Source: Neotamlana laminarinivorans (GTDB lineage: Bacteria; Bacteroidota; Bacteroidia; Flavobacteriales; Flavobacteriaceae). Taken from it: 64,000 nucleotides of DNA. Below the pieces are notes generated by a model. That model saw only the letters and a program-made list of their open reading frames with translations, did not search any database and was not told the origin of the DNA. The translations under genes were made by a program, and so were the position numbers. Of this stretch, positions 54,500 to 60,110 are shown one piece after another; positions within the stretch are counted from its first letter, which is position 1; each line of letters opens with the position of its first letter. The DNA lies in the NCBI RefSeq assembly GCF_020523925.1, contig NZ_JAJAPW010000002.1, forward strand, positions 310,001-374,000, given 5' to 3'.

Positions 54500-55417
54500 T
54501 TAATCCTGAACAATAATATCTTTTATATCATCTTTATTAAACTCAGGTTGAATAGTAACGTGGTTAATATTAAACTTTTCTTGTAATACAGTTTCAATTG
54601 TTAATAAAATAGCATCAAATTCTGTGATGGTAACATCTTCAATTAAATCTAAATGTGCTTCTAAATGCAATTCATCATCACTTAAATTCCAGATGTGTAC
54701 ATGATGTAATTTTTTTACTTTTGGTAACTTGTTAACTTCGTTTACAACTTCTTTAATATCAATATTTTCGGGTGTAAATAACATTAACATTTTGGTAGAA
54801 GATTTTAATAAAAAATAACCTACCCAAATTAAATACAAAGCAATTAAAAAAGTGAGTAAACTATCTACCCAAAACATATTAAAGTACTTCATTAACAAGC
54901 CACCAACTAAAACAGCAATACTTGCTAACATATCTGTTAATAAGTGTATATAAGCAGATTTTATATTAATATTATTACTAGATTCTTTTTTTAGCAAATA
55001 CACACTAAATCCGTTTCCTAAAATAGCCACAAGCGCAAGTATTATAACTAAATTAGATTCAATGATTTGCGGATTTTTAAAACGCTGCACAGCTTCTTTA
55101 ATTAAAACAATAGCAACAATTATTAAAGTAGAAGCATTTATGAAAGCTGCTAAAATTTCGGCACGTTTATAACCAAAAGTTCGTTGTTCTGAAGCGCGTT
55201 TATTAGTTAATTTCCTAGCTATATAGCTTACTATTAAAGATATAACATCGCTAAAATTATGCAATGCATCGCTTAATAAAGATAAACTACCAGAAATTAA
55301 ACCTCCAATAACTTGAGATGCTGTAATAAGTACATTTAAAAATATAGAAATTAACAGGTTTCTCCCTTTTAAATCTGGATGATGATGAACATGGTTATGC
55401 GAATAGTTGTGTTCCAT
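54500..55417 (-). CDS. Cation diffusion facilitator family transporter
   Basis: This exports divalent metals such as zinc or cobalt by proton antiport. The 305-aa protein has a His-rich N terminus (HNYSHNHVHHHPD) and six TM helices in residues 20-205, with LLSDALHNFSDVISLIVSY in TM2 and HLLTDMLASIAVLVGG in TM5 as metal-site helices. A cytoplasmic C-terminal domain has HHVHIWNLSDDELHLEAHL. It precedes elaA on the same strand and starts 5 nt after rpiB. Confidence 0.93.
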   Translation of the reverse strand: MEHNYSHNHVHHHPDLKGRNLLISIFLNVLITASQVIGGLISGSLSLLSDALHNFSDVISLIVSYIARKLTNKRASEQRTFGYKRAEILAAFINASTLIIVAIVLIKEAVQRFKNPQIIESNLVIILALVAILGNGFSVYLLKKESSNNINIKSAYIHLLTDMLASIAVLVGGLLMKYFNMFWVDSLLTFLIALYLIWVGYFLLKSSTKMLMLFTPENIDIKEVVNEVNKLPKVKKLHHVHIWNLSDDELHLEAHLDLIEDVTITEFDAILLTIETVLQEKFNINHVTIQPEFNKDDIKDIIVQD

Positions 55418-55422
55418 TCATA

Positions 55423-55857
55423 TTAACAAGATAACGGAATTTTATCTACACGTCGTTGATGACGACCGCCTTCAAATTCTGTATTTAAAAAAGTTTCAAC
55501 CATTTCAACAGCTTGTTCTATAGCTGTAAATCGTGAAGGAATGCATAATATATTAGCATTATTATGCCCACGAATAAGTTCAACTATTTCTTTAGTCCAA
55601 CATAAACCAGCACGAATACCTTGATGTTTATTAGCTGTTATAGCAACACCATTGGCACTACCACAAATTAAAATACCAAAAGTAGCTTTTTTGTTGGTAA
55701 CATCTGTGGCAACTGGATGAACAAAATCTGGATAATCTACACTATCTTTACTATCTGTACCGTGATTTAAAACGGTATATCCTCTTTCTTCAAGATATTT
55801 TACAATTGCGAATTTATAATCGGTACCAGCGTGGTCGTTTCCTATAGAAATTGTCAT
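55423..55857 (-). CDS. rpiB: Ribose 5-phosphate isomerase B
   Basis: RpiB interconverts ribose 5-phosphate and ribulose 5-phosphate. The 144-aa protein has SIGNDHAGTDYK, DYPDFVHPVATDV, GILICGSANGVAITANKHQGIRAGLCW in parts with the catalytic Cys, and NNANILCIPSRF. Length is standard. It begins the rpiB-CDF minus-strand pair and is divergent from the candidate origin region. Confidence 0.96.
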   Translation of the reverse strand: MTISIGNDHAGTDYKFAIVKYLEERGYTVLNHGTDSKDSVDYPDFVHPVATDVTNKKATFGILICGSANGVAITANKHQGIRAGLCWTKEIVELIRGHNNANILCIPSRFTAIEQAVEMVETFLNTEFEGGRHQRRVDKIPLSC

Positions 55858-56459
55858 TTTTTTATACTTTAATATATGTATACAAAGGTAACGAATTAGT
55901 ATTTAGATAGCTATCTGATAAAAAAACTTATCATTTATTTTAACATGTTAATAACCTCATATTTTTTACAAAAGCTGTGCATTAGTTTTTCATTACATGT
56001 TAATAACTGTTAATATGTTTTTAAAACATTTATTAGGTTTTTATCTAAAAAATTACAATCCGTAACGTTATCGTAACATACAAATTAGTTAATGTAAATT
56101 TTTGGTTAACTTATTAGCACTAAAATGTGCAGTTATAAGCACTATTAACAAACCATATTTATTAAAAATTAACAGTTAATTATGTTATTAACAATTGTTA
56201 ATAGTAATATAGAAAACATCTAAAAACAAAGATTTTACGTATACTAAATACTGTTAATTAGATATTAATTATTTTTAATAACCCATAAATCAAAATAAAT
56301 ATTAAAAAAGTTATACCGCTATTAACAAGCTATAATAACCATCATTTATTTTTTAAAATTTTTAAAAGAAAAAGATATTATAATATATAATGTGGATAAC
56401 TTAAAAATTAAATAATTTTACTTTAAATATTTACCAAACAATCTAAAACTTAACCTACA
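55858..56459. other. Candidate replication origin (oriC): AT-rich, DnaA-box-like cluster
   Basis: These 602 bp hold no gene and lie between divergent genes. A perfect consensus DnaA box (complement of TTATCCACA) lies at 56391-56399. TGTTAATAA or its complement TTATTAACA, 7 of 9 matches to the DnaA consensus, occurs at 55946-55954, 55998-56006 and 56185-56193. One-base variants lie at 56008-56016, 56142-56150, 56196-56204 and 56319-56327. A stretch almost free of G and C (56341-56390) beside the perfect box could be the unwinding element. No dnaA is in the window, which is often so in Bacteroidota. The assignment is inference. Confidence 0.5.
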
Positions 56460-57683
56460 ATGTTTAGAAAATTACTTTTATTACTTCTTGTTTTAATAAT
56501 ACAAAGAGTAAACTCGCAAACCTTTAACGACGGTGTTTTATTTTACACAGTTATAAATACAGAAAACAAATATGTTTCTGTTGAAAAACTAAGCGATTGT
56601 CCTGTTGGCAATTTAACTATTCCTGAAACGGCAACTTATTTAGATGTAAACTATACTGTTACTAGTATATCTGAAGATGCTTTTTCTAGTTGCGACCGCT
56701 TACTTAATGTAACTTTGCCTGAAACTATTACAGTTATTAACAATAATGCTTTTTATAATTGCCCCAGATTAGAAAGTATTAATATTCCTGAAAGCGTAAA
56801 TGAAATTGGGGACGAAGTATTTTATTATTGTCAAGCTTTAACAAATATTACTATACCCGAAGGTGTTACAACTATTGGTAAATATACTTTTTTTTATTGT
56901 ACCAATTTGGACACTATAAATTTACCTAGTACAATAAATACAATAAAAACAAATGCTTTTTCGTACTGCGAAGGTTTGGTAAATATTAATTTACCAGATG
57001 CACTCACAACCATTGAAAATTATGCTTTTTTTAAATGTGAAAGTTTAAGAAGTTTAACTATACCAGAAAATATAAACAGAATAGAATATTATACCTTTTC
57101 ATTTTGTAGTTCATTAGTTTCAATAGAATTACCTAATAATTTAACTTTTATTGGTACTGCTGCGTTTAATTTCTGTTCAAGTCTAGAAAATTTAACTATT
57201 CCTGTTTCTGTTAACACTATACAAGATTATGCTTTTGGTTCTTGTACAGGTTTAAAAAACGTAACAGTAAATTGGTCTACACCTCTAGTTATAAATGATG
57301 TTTATGGTAATAGTAACATGTTTAATGGTGTAAACTTACCGGATGTAAATTTATACGTAATTCCAGATTATATTACCGATTATGAAATGGCTGATGTTTG
57401 GCAAGATTTTAATATTCAAGGTCAAACTTTATCAAATACTGAGATAATCAAACTAGACCAAAATGTTACTTTATATCCAAATCCGGTTTCTAATAATGTT
57501 TTATACATTAAATTATCTAATAACTTACAGCTTAATCAATTAAAACTATTTAATTTACAAGGACAAATAATAAAAAGTACCGAAAAAGCAATACTTAATA
57601 CAAATAATTTAAAAAGTGGAATGTATTTGGTTGAAGTTAGCACTAATTCGGGTAAATTATTAAAAAAAATTATGGTATTGTAA
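56460..57683 (+). CDS. BspA-like leucine-rich repeat protein with T9SS type A sorting tail
   Basis: The 407-aa protein has a signal peptide (about 1-19, ending RVNSQ). About nine LRR_5/BspA repeats of roughly 23 residues follow (repeating xIPExVxxIGxxxFxxCxxL, seen as SINIPESVNEIGDEVFYYC and NITIPEGVTTIGKYTFFYC). A C-terminal type A sorting domain (LYPNPVSNNVLYIKL to SGKLLKKIMVL) ends it. BspA-type LRR proteins are surface adhesins. The regular repeat makes it a good target for recombination. Confidence 0.92.
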   Translation: MFRKLLLLLLVLIIQRVNSQTFNDGVLFYTVINTENKYVSVEKLSDCPVGNLTIPETATYLDVNYTVTSISEDAFSSCDRLLNVTLPETITVINNNAFYNCPRLESINIPESVNEIGDEVFYYCQALTNITIPEGVTTIGKYTFFYCTNLDTINLPSTINTIKTNAFSYCEGLVNINLPDALTTIENYAFFKCESLRSLTIPENINRIEYYTFSFCSSLVSIELPNNLTFIGTAAFNFCSSLENLTIPVSVNTIQDYAFGSCTGLKNVTVNWSTPLVINDVYGNSNMFNGVNLPDVNLYVIPDYITDYEMADVWQDFNIQGQTLSNTEIIKLDQNVTLYPNPVSNNVLYIKLSNNLQLNQLKLFNLQGQIIKSTEKAILNTNNLKSGMYLVEVSTNSGKLLKKIMVL

Positions 57684-57706
57684 ATTTTAATAATTTATAA
57701 ATCATT

Positions 57707-57738
57707 AAAGCTCAAGTATTAATTCTTGGGCTTTTTTT
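57707..57738 (+). terminator. Intrinsic terminator after the BspA-like gene
   Basis: AAAGCTCAAG (57707-57716) pairs with CTTGGGCTTT (57725-57734), with one G-U pair and a T run. Confidence 0.85.
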
Positions 57739-57778
57739 GTTTTAATTACTATTAAAACTATGTTTAATTTAATTGTTG

Positions 57779-57786
57779 TAGCTTTG
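57779..57786 (+). promoter_or_regulatory. -7 promoter box of rnr
   Basis: TAGCTTTG matches TAnnTTTG. It leaves a leader of about 85 nt before the rnr ATG, longer than for most genes here. Confidence 0.45.
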
Positions 57787-57878
57787 TAATCTAGAAATAG
57801 CAATTACTTCACAATAAAAAGCTATTTAATAACTCAATTTCCTTTATCTTAGGAAATAAATAAGATTACAAATATTAC

Positions 57879-60110
57879 ATGAGCAGAAAAAGAAAAGGAA
57901 AATCCAAAAAAAAGGGGATTTCCAACCTTACAAATACAATTTTAAGCATATTAAAAAAAGATCGAAATCAAGCGTTTAATTATAAACAAATAGCTGCAAA
58001 ACTAGGTGTTAACGATGCTAGTAGCCGTAACCAAATTATAAAAACTTTAGCCAAACTTGCTGGAAAACAAGAAATTGAAGAAGTAGATCGTGGTAAATTT
58101 AAAGCCGTTGTTAATACCGAATATTACACCGGTATTTTAGATTTATCTGCAAGAGGTTCTGGATATATTATTTGCGACGAGTTTGAAGAAGATATATACA
58201 TAGCTTCAAACAATATTAATCGTGCGTTAAACGGAGACGAAGTAGAATTTTACTTATACAAACGCCGTAAACGTGGCAAAATGGAAGGTGAAATTACGCA
58301 AGTTTTAAAACGAGATAAAAGTGAGTATGTAGGTGTAATTCAATTACATAGTAATTATGCATTTGTAGTGCCAGATAGTACAAAAATGTATAAAGATATT
58401 TTTGTACCCATAAATAAAACTTTTAAAGCCGAAGATGGAGATAAAGTATTAGTAAAACTTGAAGATTGGCCAGAAAAAGCCGATTCTCCTTACGGAAAAG
58501 TAATAAAAGTTCTAGGTAAACCAGGAGAACACAATACAGAAATTCATGCTATTTTAGCCGATTATGGTTTACCAAGCGAATTTCCAGAAGCCGTTGAAGC
58601 TTATGCAAATGAGTTAGATACATCTATAACCGAAAACGAAATAGCTAAACGACGTGATATGCGTAAAGATTTAACCTTTACCATCGATCCTAAAGACGCA
58701 AAAGATTTTGATGATGCATTATCATTTAAAAAATTAGAAAATGGTTTATTCGAAGTTGGTATTCATATAGCAGATGTATCACATTATTTACAAGAAGGCA
58801 CCGTTCTAGATGATGAAGCTTACGAGCGAGCCACATCGGTTTATTTAGTAGATAGAGTAGTGCCAATGCTACCCGAAGTACTATCTAACAATGCCTGTTC
58901 ATTGCGTCCGCATGAAGAAAAATATACATTTTCGGCAGTATTTACTTTAAACGATAAAGCTGAAATAAAAGACCAATGGTTTGGTAGAACAGTAACTTAT
59001 AGTGATGCTCGTTTTGCTTACGAAGAAGCTCAGGCAATAATTGAAAATAATTCCGGTGTCACGCTGGGTGCGATCGAAACGTCAAAAATCAATACCGAAA
59101 TTCCAGAAGAAGTATCATTAACAGGAAAAGCATATAAAACAAAACCCGAAATTGCCGAAGCTGTTTTAGTATTAGATAAACTCGCTAAAAAAATGCGCGG
59201 TGAGCGTATGCGTTCTGGAGCTATTTCTTTCGATAAAGTTGAAGTAAAATTCAATTTAGATGAAAATAATGATCCGGTTGGTGTTTTCTTTAAAACCAGT
59301 AAAGATGCTAATAAATTAATTGAAGAATTTATGCTTCTTGCTAACCGAAAAGTATCGGAATTTATTGGTAAACAATCGCCTAAAAAAACCTTTGTTTACA
59401 GAGTTCATGACGAGCCAGACGAAAGTAAATTAGCTAGTTTACAAGGTGTTGTAAAACGTTTTGGTTATAAACTCGATTTTAAAGATAGAAAATCTACTTC
59501 AACTTCATTAAATAATTTACTTAAAGAAGTTAATGGTAAAAAAGAGCAAAATTTAGTCGATACTTTAGCCATACGAAGTATGAGTAAAGCCGAATATTCT
59601 ACACACAATATTGGGCATTATGGTTTAGCATTCGATTATTACAGCCACTTTACATCGCCTATACGCCGTTATCCGGACGTTATGGCACACCGATTAATAC
59701 AACACTATTTAGAGGGCGGAAAAAGCGCTAATGAAGATGTTTACGAAGAAAAATGTAAACACTCCAGCGATATGGAAAATTTAGCCACAAAAGCCGAACG
59801 CGATTCTATTAAATACATGCAAATTCGATTTATGGAAGATCATAAAGATGAAGAATTTATAGGTGTTATTTCTGGAGTAACAGATTGGGGTATTTATGTT
59901 GAAATTATTTCGAATAAATGTGAAGGTATGGTAAGTGTTCGTGATATGACAGATGATCATTATGCTTTCGATCAAGAACTTTACGCTATGGTTGGCAAAA
60001 GTAATAAAATTGTTTATCAACTTGGTGATGAAGTTGTTGTAAAAGTAAAAAATACCGATTTAGTTAAAAAACACTTAGATTTTACTTTAATAGGTAAAGC
60101 TGAGGAATAA
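57879..60110 (+). CDS. rnr: Ribonuclease R
   Basis: RNase R is a 3'-to-5' exoribonuclease that degrades structured RNA. The 743-aa protein has a basic N-terminal tail (MSRKRKGKSKKKG), a winged HTH (about 25-75), two cold-shock domains, the RNB catalytic core with the DPKDAKDFDDALSF metal-binding aspartates, HFTSPIRRYPDVMAHR and a C-terminal S1 domain (FIGVISGVTDWGIYVEI). It is monocistronic and has a rather long leader. Confidence 0.96.
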   Translation: MSRKRKGKSKKKGISNLTNTILSILKKDRNQAFNYKQIAAKLGVNDASSRNQIIKTLAKLAGKQEIEEVDRGKFKAVVNTEYYTGILDLSARGSGYIICDEFEEDIYIASNNINRALNGDEVEFYLYKRRKRGKMEGEITQVLKRDKSEYVGVIQLHSNYAFVVPDSTKMYKDIFVPINKTFKAEDGDKVLVKLEDWPEKADSPYGKVIKVLGKPGEHNTEIHAILADYGLPSEFPEAVEAYANELDTSITENEIAKRRDMRKDLTFTIDPKDAKDFDDALSFKKLENGLFEVGIHIADVSHYLQEGTVLDDEAYERATSVYLVDRVVPMLPEVLSNNACSLRPHEEKYTFSAVFTLNDKAEIKDQWFGRTVTYSDARFAYEEAQAIIENNSGVTLGAIETSKINTEIPEEVSLTGKAYKTKPEIAEAVLVLDKLAKKMRGERMRSGAISFDKVEVKFNLDENNDPVGVFFKTSKDANKLIEEFMLLANRKVSEFIGKQSPKKTFVYRVHDEPDESKLASLQGVVKRFGYKLDFKDRKSTSTSLNNLLKEVNGKKEQNLVDTLAIRSMSKAEYSTHNIGHYGLAFDYYSHFTSPIRRYPDVMAHRLIQHYLEGGKSANEDVYEEKCKHSSDMENLATKAERDSIKYMQIRFMEDHKDEEFIGVISGVTDWGIYVEIISNKCEGMVSVRDMTDDHYAFDQELYAMVGKSNKIVYQLGDEVVVKVKNTDLVKKHLDFTLIGKAEE

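What the first reader, a model, noticed from the sequence alone, without database searches (positions are those of the whole stretch)
55858..56459. Candidate chromosomal replication origin
A 602-bp, very AT-rich, gene-free, divergent region has one perfect DnaA box and at least seven TGTTAATAA-type boxes in both orientations, plus an adjacent stretch nearly free of G and C. Clusters like this mark bacterial origins. In Bacteroidota oriC often is not beside dnaA.
Basis: partly seen in the sequence, partly recalled or inferred. Interest (0 to 1): 0.65.

Follow-up and report, generated by a model that had tools for sequence, protein, structure and literature searches.

The report
Flavobacterial chromosome origin beside rpiB
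This short AT-rich stretch is almost certainly where a flavobacterium starts copying its chromosome, and the same precisely spaced set of initiator-binding sites is found next to the same gene, far from dnaA, across much of the family Flavobacteriaceae.

Summary
The 602-bp gap is 18.6 % GC and holds one perfect DnaA box plus seven TGTTAATA sites. It is the only such cluster on its 672-kb contig and contains some of that contig's least stable DNA. The contig's cumulative GC skew has its minimum about 1 kb away; three closed relatives also flip skew here. dnaA lies 23-47 % of a chromosome away in 29 closed genomes. Upstream of rpiB in 103 family loci, five boxes recur at fixed spacings (about 198, 123 and 71 bp), although most DNA between them has diverged to near-shuffled identity. 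Between the last two boxes lies a conserved AT-rich segment with a three-base-periodic NAT array resembling DnaA-trios. A strict box-plus-array pattern occurs exactly once per genome in 102 of 249 genomes, just upstream of rpiB in 69 of 70 checkable cases, and persists in four genomes without a detectable rpiB. A reduced genome without dnaA shows no array. New points: the box has shifted to TTATTAACA, and the architecture is rigid and lineage-specific. Origin activity and DnaA binding were not measured.

The parts
55858..56459 (.). intergenic oriC region (outer limits)
   Evidence: no ORF of 80 aa or more; 18.6 % GC, box enrichment; skew minimum nearby
55998..56399 (.). conserved oriC core, box 1 to box B5, about 390-393 bp across the family
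   Evidence: spacing statistics
55946..55954 (+). outer TGTTAATAA box, not part of the conserved five-box template
55998..56015 (+). box 1 (TGTTAATAA) and its tandem partner TGTTAATA 10 bp on
   Evidence: aligned column block invariant in 14 sequences
56142..56150 (-). additional TGTTAATAG box
56185..56203 (.). inverted box pair TTATTAACA / TGTTAATA
   Evidence: pair spacing of 10 in 36 of 43 loci
56309..56319 (+). AGTTATACCGC, a GC-bearing motif left of B4, shared by about a third of loci
56319..56327 (-). box B4 (TGTTAATAG; top strand CTATTAACA), pointing into the unwinding segment
56328..56345 (+). AGC then TAT-AAT-AAC-CAT-CAT: three-base-periodic array with conserved adenines at 56332, 56335, 56338, 56341, 56344 (DnaA-trio-like)
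   Evidence: single copy per genome
56346..56390 (.). AT-rich segment, the probable DNA unwinding element together with the array
   Evidence: duplex instability; identity 0.86 to relatives against 0.65 shuffled for B4-B5
56363..56374 (+). TAA-AAG-AAA-AAG, candidate consensus-type DnaA-trios 16 nt from B5
   Evidence: runs of 4 or more in 34 % of loci against 5 % of shuffles with spacers up to 26; rule from PMC8287927; weakly specific in AT-rich DNA
56391..56399 (-). box B5, the perfect DnaA box TTATCCACA
55423..55857 (-). rpiB, the conserved left neighbour
   Evidence: PF02502
57879..60110 (+). rnr (ribonuclease R), usual right neighbour in the family
   Evidence: PF00773

Best explanation
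The region is the chromosomal replication origin (oriC) of this flavobacterium. DnaA, encoded far away, binds a fixed set of asymmetric 9-bp boxes: mostly the lineage variant TTATTAACA, plus one canonical site. These build a nucleoprotein complex over about 400 bp, from a tandem box on the left through an inverted pair to box B4. B4 and the perfect box B5 face each other across a roughly 62-bp AT-rich unwinding element. DnaA loaded from these boxes captures one strand through three-base-periodic, adenine-centred motifs and melts the segment, so two forks leave in opposite directions. Shown: position, skew switch, box enrichment, fixed spacing, uniqueness per genome, conserved periodic array, absence of the array in the dnaA-less genome examined. 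Inferred: DnaA binding, which box or array nucleates melting, and fork departure.
For: Skew minimum of the whole contig within about 1 kb and best split at 366-368 kb; skew flip in three closed relatives. Box enrichment and the only dense cluster on the contig. Least stable DNA of the contig. Fixed box spacings, 23 loci against a null maximum of 6; template fits 93 of 103 loci against 1 of 114 shuffles; spacing kept where sequence is not. Period-3 adenines at 89-100 % in 74 loci. Box-plus-array pattern once per genome in 102 of 249 genomes, reversed control 0, 389-2118 bp upstream of rpiB in 69 of 70 checkable genomes (compared by hand). The array survives where no rpiB is found and is not found in the dnaA-less genome examined. 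Invariant box letters are TAT--ACA, those of the DnaA box. The own DnaA aligns end to end with the E. coli DNA-binding domain.
Against: No marker-frequency or binding data. The skew curve is nearly flat for about 130 kb left of the minimum, so skew alone locates the origin loosely. Gene strand bias is weak. Only one box matches the canonical consensus. The strict pattern is missed in 147 of 249 genomes, and ten family loci fit the five-box template poorly, some because of insertions next to rpiB.
Confidence: 0.95

Rival explanations
1. A conserved regulatory region for the divergently transcribed rpiB and rnr genes (an operator array for a transcription factor), not an origin.
For: It sits between divergent genes, and rpiB is the most constant neighbour.
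Against: Four genomes without an rpiB match keep the module, and in one genome it lies on another contig than rpiB. In family f4 rnr lies on the other side of rpiB. In the window a separate promoter-like motif of rnr sits 1.3 kb away. A promoter does not explain the chromosome-scale skew switch.
Confidence: 0.03
2. The true origin is at dnaA or another locus and this is a secondary DnaA-binding locus (datA- or DARS-like titration site).
For: DnaA-box clusters also occur at non-origin regulatory loci in E. coli (established knowledge). One paper on a related genus places oriC at mnmG by Ori-Finder (PMC12843772).
Against: dnaA has no boxes in 500 bp upstream and no skew switch. The skew minimum and the least stable DNA coincide with this cluster.
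Confidence: 0.03
3. It is the origin, but the TTATTAACA sites are bound by another protein (a nucleoid protein or lineage-specific initiator) and only the canonical box is a DnaA site.
For: C6 of the canonical box is replaced by A in most sites; the E. coli consensus TTWTNCACA has C there (PMC7561715).
Against: At the same aligned position the box is TATTAACA in some genera and TATCAACA or TATCCACA in others, so the forms appear to substitute for one another. The conserved letters are those of the DnaA box. The own DnaA has Ala where E. coli and B. subtilis have Thr in RDHTTV, a possible cause of altered preference.
Confidence: 0.12

Closest known systems
E. coli oriC (AT-rich DUE followed by box R1, with a DnaA-box array)
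   Same: A perfect TGTGGATAA box directly follows the AT-rich segment in the same orientation as R1 (R1 layout from established knowledge); several weaker boxes in both orientations at fixed positions.
   Different: Most boxes are TTATTAACA rather than TTATNCACA; a second box (B4) faces the DUE from the other side; neighbours are rpiB and rnr rather than gidA and mioC.
Bacillus subtilis basal unwinding system (DnaA-boxes 6/7 plus DnaA-trios; PMC6669920, PMC8287927, PMC10721633)
   Same: DnaA box next to a three-base-periodic, adenine-centred element at the melting segment; a candidate run of consensus-type trios lies 16 nt from B5.
   Different: The strongly conserved array beside B4 reads NAT on the box strand, so its polarity differs from 3'-GAT-5'. 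The origin is not at dnaA.
Lineage-shifted DnaA boxes (cyanobacterial TTTTCCACA, Thermotoga AAACCTACCACC)
   Same: Known precedent that the box drifts by lineage (PMC10225481).
   Different: Here the change is at position 6 (C to A), and a canonical box coexists in the same origin.
Predicted oriC of Elizabethkingia meningoseptica (PMC8994065)
   Same: Order Flavobacteriales; a 649-bp predicted origin far from dnaA.
   Different: Predicted with the E. coli box only; gene neighbours and conserved spacing were not reported in the passages read.

Membership tests
Bacterial DnaA-dependent oriC | Coincides with the replication-strand switch (GC-skew minimum) | tested here: met
   own contig; three closed relatives
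Bacterial DnaA-dependent oriC | Cluster of DnaA boxes above chance | tested here: met
   most sites are the TTATTAACA variant
Bacterial DnaA-dependent oriC | AT-rich, easily melted DNA unwinding element next to boxes | tested here: met
   computed duplex stability only
Bacterial DnaA-dependent oriC | Unique per chromosome and conserved in relatives | tested here: met
Bacterial DnaA-dependent oriC | Genome encodes DnaA with a box-binding domain IV | tested here: met
   array not found in the dnaA-less genome examined
Bacterial DnaA-dependent oriC | DnaA binds the boxes and the site fires in vivo | not testable with these tools
   needs binding assay and marker-frequency data
DnaA-adjacent oriC (common bacterial arrangement) | Located beside dnaA or dnaN | tested here: not met
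   0.23-0.47 chromosome from dnaA in 29 closed relatives
Basal unwinding system (DnaA-box, spacer up to 16, at least three adenine-centred trios) | At least three NAN trios within 16 bp of a DnaA box on the correct strand | tested here: inconclusive
   window has TAA-AAG-AAA-AAG at a 16-nt spacer from B5; enriched against shuffles when spacers up to 26 are allowed, but the motif is weakly specific in AT-rich DNA
Basal unwinding system (DnaA-box, spacer up to 16, at least three adenine-centred trios) | 3'-GAT-5' type consensus at the array beside the box | tested here: not met
   the strongly conserved array beside B4 is NAT on the box strand

The most novel reading that the evidence does not exclude
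Flavobacteriaceae share a rigid five-box oriC in which two convergent DnaA sites flank the unwinding element, a new adenine-centred NAT array of different polarity from known DnaA-trios loads DnaA, and the DnaA recognition site has shifted from TTATCCACA to TTATTAACA together with a Thr-to-Ala change in the recognition helix.
Probability: 0.3. Interest if true: 0.75.

Novelty: new variant of a known kind. Interest (0 to 1): 0.55.

Why it matters
To my knowledge few Bacteroidota origins have been mapped experimentally, and prediction tools lean on dnaA proximity and the E. coli box, both of which can mislead here. A sequence-defined, single-copy landmark tied to rpiB lets anyone place oriC in flavobacterial genomes and drafts, supports growth-rate estimates from coverage, and makes it testable with short DNA how a strictly spaced DnaA array and a variant trinucleotide element open a chromosome.

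Tried and rejected
Origin at dnaA: rejected (no boxes in 500 bp upstream, no skew switch). rpiB/rnr regulatory array: rejected as sole function (module present in four genomes with no rpiB match, rnr displaced in f4). Structured RNA: the only Rfam match in 54500-58500 has E = 0.82 and lies far below its gathering score. Gene strand bias as support: weak, 51 % of ORF length on the leading strand on the left arm and 62 % on the right. TA skew gave no clear extreme at the locus. Local 9-kb skew around rpiB in 32 closed family genomes is higher on the rnr side in 28 (counted), but the divergent genes themselves contribute, so little weight is put on it. The whole genome was not available as a file, so skew of relatives rests on 20-kb samples. 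Literature searches in the held library returned no paper that links a Flavobacteriaceae origin to rpiB and none that reports TTATTAACA as a DnaA box; subscription papers and the DoriC tables themselves could not be searched.

Full report
Observation. The 602-bp gap at 55858-56459 lies between rpiB (minus) and a leucine-rich-repeat gene (plus) and holds no ORF of at least 80 aa. It is 18.6 % GC against 32 % for the window. It carries one perfect DnaA box (56391-56399, minus strand) and seven exact TGTTAATA sites in both orientations. Exact TGTTAATAA occurs three times where 0.16 is expected, and TGTTAA ten times where 2.1 is expected. On the 672,523-bp contig this is the only dense TGTTAATA cluster, and its 56353-56432 segment ranks at the 99.9996th percentile of duplex instability.

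Replication-strand evidence. The contig was read as 20-kb stretches plus the window. The cumulative GC skew falls from 0 to -6619 at position 367,221 and returns to about 0 at the end of the contig. The best two-segment split lies at 366-368 kb; the region is at 365,858-366,459. The left flank is nearly flat for about 130 kb, so skew alone is less sharp than the minimum suggests. In the closed relatives G243, G096 and G187, 20-kb samples flip from negative to positive at the same locus. dnaA lies on another contig and shows the same skew sign on both sides. None of the box types occurs in the 500 bp upstream of it. In 29 closed relatives dnaA is 0.23-0.47 of the chromosome away from rpiB.

Comparative anatomy. 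A search with the rnr protein brought 80 loci, mostly named Flavobacteriaceae. Nearly all that include rpiB show a divergent, AT-rich gap upstream of it. In 70 such regions TGTTAATA is the most over-represented 8-mer (181 against 23, in 66 regions); TGTTGATA and TGTGGATA are also strongly enriched. Read in the DnaA-box direction these are TTATTAACA, TTATCAACA and TTATCCACA. The columns of the two best placed boxes are nearly invariant at TAT--ACA, and the variable letters are box positions 5 and 6. The same aligned position holds different forms in different genera, so they appear interchangeable.

Fixed spacing. Across 103 family loci the commonest oriented box spacing recurs in 23 loci, against at most 6 in 500 randomisations. 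The layout is a tandem box (55998/56008), an inverted pair (56185/56196), box B4 (56320) and box B5 (56391), at about 198, 123 and 71 bp. A template of five boxes fits 93 of 103 family loci at 7 or fewer mismatches in 40 letters, against 1 of 114 shuffled sequences. In the 43 best loci the three internal distances have interquartile ranges of 1 bp and box1-B5 of 2 bp, while the distances to rpiB (71-273) and to rnr (142-1943) vary. The DNA between box 1, the pair and B4 is hardly more similar to the window than shuffled DNA (0.68-0.69 against 0.63-0.64), whereas the B4-B5 segment is 0.86. In L009 and L019 the inverted pair is opened by about 10 bp, one helical turn. The template was taken from the window, and part of the agreement reflects shared ancestry; the point is that spacing outlasted sequence.

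The unwinding segment. B4 and B5 point toward each other across about 62 bp. Directly right of B4 lies AGC-TAT-AAT-AAC-CAT-CAT (56328-56345). In 74 loci chosen only by the B4-B5 spacing, A stands at +5, +8, +11, +14 and +17 in 100, 100, 89, 96 and 95 % of loci, while several letters between them vary. L025 has CAT five times and L036 has CAT-CAT-CAC-CAT-CAT. A conserved middle adenine every three bases is what a DnaA-trio-like element would show, but its polarity differs from the 3'-GAT-5' trios of B. subtilis (PMC6669920, PMC10721633). Left of B5, TAA-AAG-AAA-AAG with a 16-nt spacer would satisfy the published trio rule (PMC8287927). Runs of four or more occur in 34 % of loci against 5 % of shuffles, with spacers up to 26 allowed. 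Which element loads DnaA is not decided.

Uniqueness and linkage. A strict B4-plus-array pattern was found in 102 of 249 Flavobacteriaceae genomes, exactly once in each, with no hit of the reversed control. Compared by hand with the rpiB positions, it lies 389-2118 bp upstream of rpiB in matching orientation in 69 of 70 checkable genomes. G104 has it on another contig. G066, G216, G115 and G241 have no rpiB match yet keep it, so it does not exist to serve rpiB. In order family f4 rnr lies on the other side of rpiB, but boxes including an inverted pair remain upstream of rpiB in several members. In the window, the rnr promoter-like motif GTAGCTTTG sits at 57778, beyond the LRR gene; the LRR gene is absent from the corresponding gap in G001 and G002. 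Four 0.6-Mb genomes of family f13 lack dnaA, and the one examined has no template match. They resemble Blattabacterium, for which absence of dnaA and of DnaA boxes is published (PMC2768785); that identification is inferred from size and order only.

DnaA. Domain IV of the own DnaA aligns end to end with E. coli 1J1V and keeps RQ-AM and RDH-TV. It has Ala where E. coli and B. subtilis have the first Thr of RDHTTV; a relative, G243, has the same. A link to the C-to-A change at box position 6 is a hypothesis.

Verdict. The region is oriC (0.95). The kind is well known. The position upstream of rpiB, the TTATTAACA box, the rigid five-box layout and the NAT array make it a lineage variant that I did not find described in the held literature, although database predictions such as DoriC may already hold the locations.

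Noticed in passing
window 56460-57683: A BspA-type leucine-rich-repeat gene with a Por secretion tail sits between the origin and the rnr promoter; it is absent from the gap in sibling genomes G001 and G002, so it looks like a recent insertion right beside oriC.
   Followed up: partly
G000 contig C48, 240-365 kb: About 130 kb left of the origin has near-zero GC skew; a similar weak stretch lies left of the origin in G243 (1.1-1.35 Mb). Possibly a gene-orientation or recent-rearrangement effect near the origin.
   Followed up: no
G000 contig C48, about 534034 and 535172: Two small clusters of three TGTTAATA sites each, 1138 bp apart and with the same internal spacing (76 bp), probably a duplicated sequence.
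   Followed up: no
order family f13 genomes G269, G274, G278, G283: Reduced 0.6-Mb genomes lack a DnaA domain; in the one examined (L228) the box template upstream of rpiB is also missing.
   Followed up: partly
order family f4 loci L213-L216, L229: rnr lies on the other side of rpiB with a different orientation, while boxes remain upstream of rpiB with a shorter first spacing (about 169 bp), suggesting a related but re-spaced origin.
   Followed up: partly
PMC12843772 (Algorimicrobium, formerly Bizionia): The paper places oriC at mnmG using Ori-Finder; related Bizionia (L040) carries the rpiB-linked array, so that published placement deserves a check.
   Followed up: no
G000 DnaA, contig C37 about 274.6-276 kb: Recognition-helix motif reads RDHATV instead of RDHTTV, the same in G243; may relate to the altered DnaA box.
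   Followed up: partly
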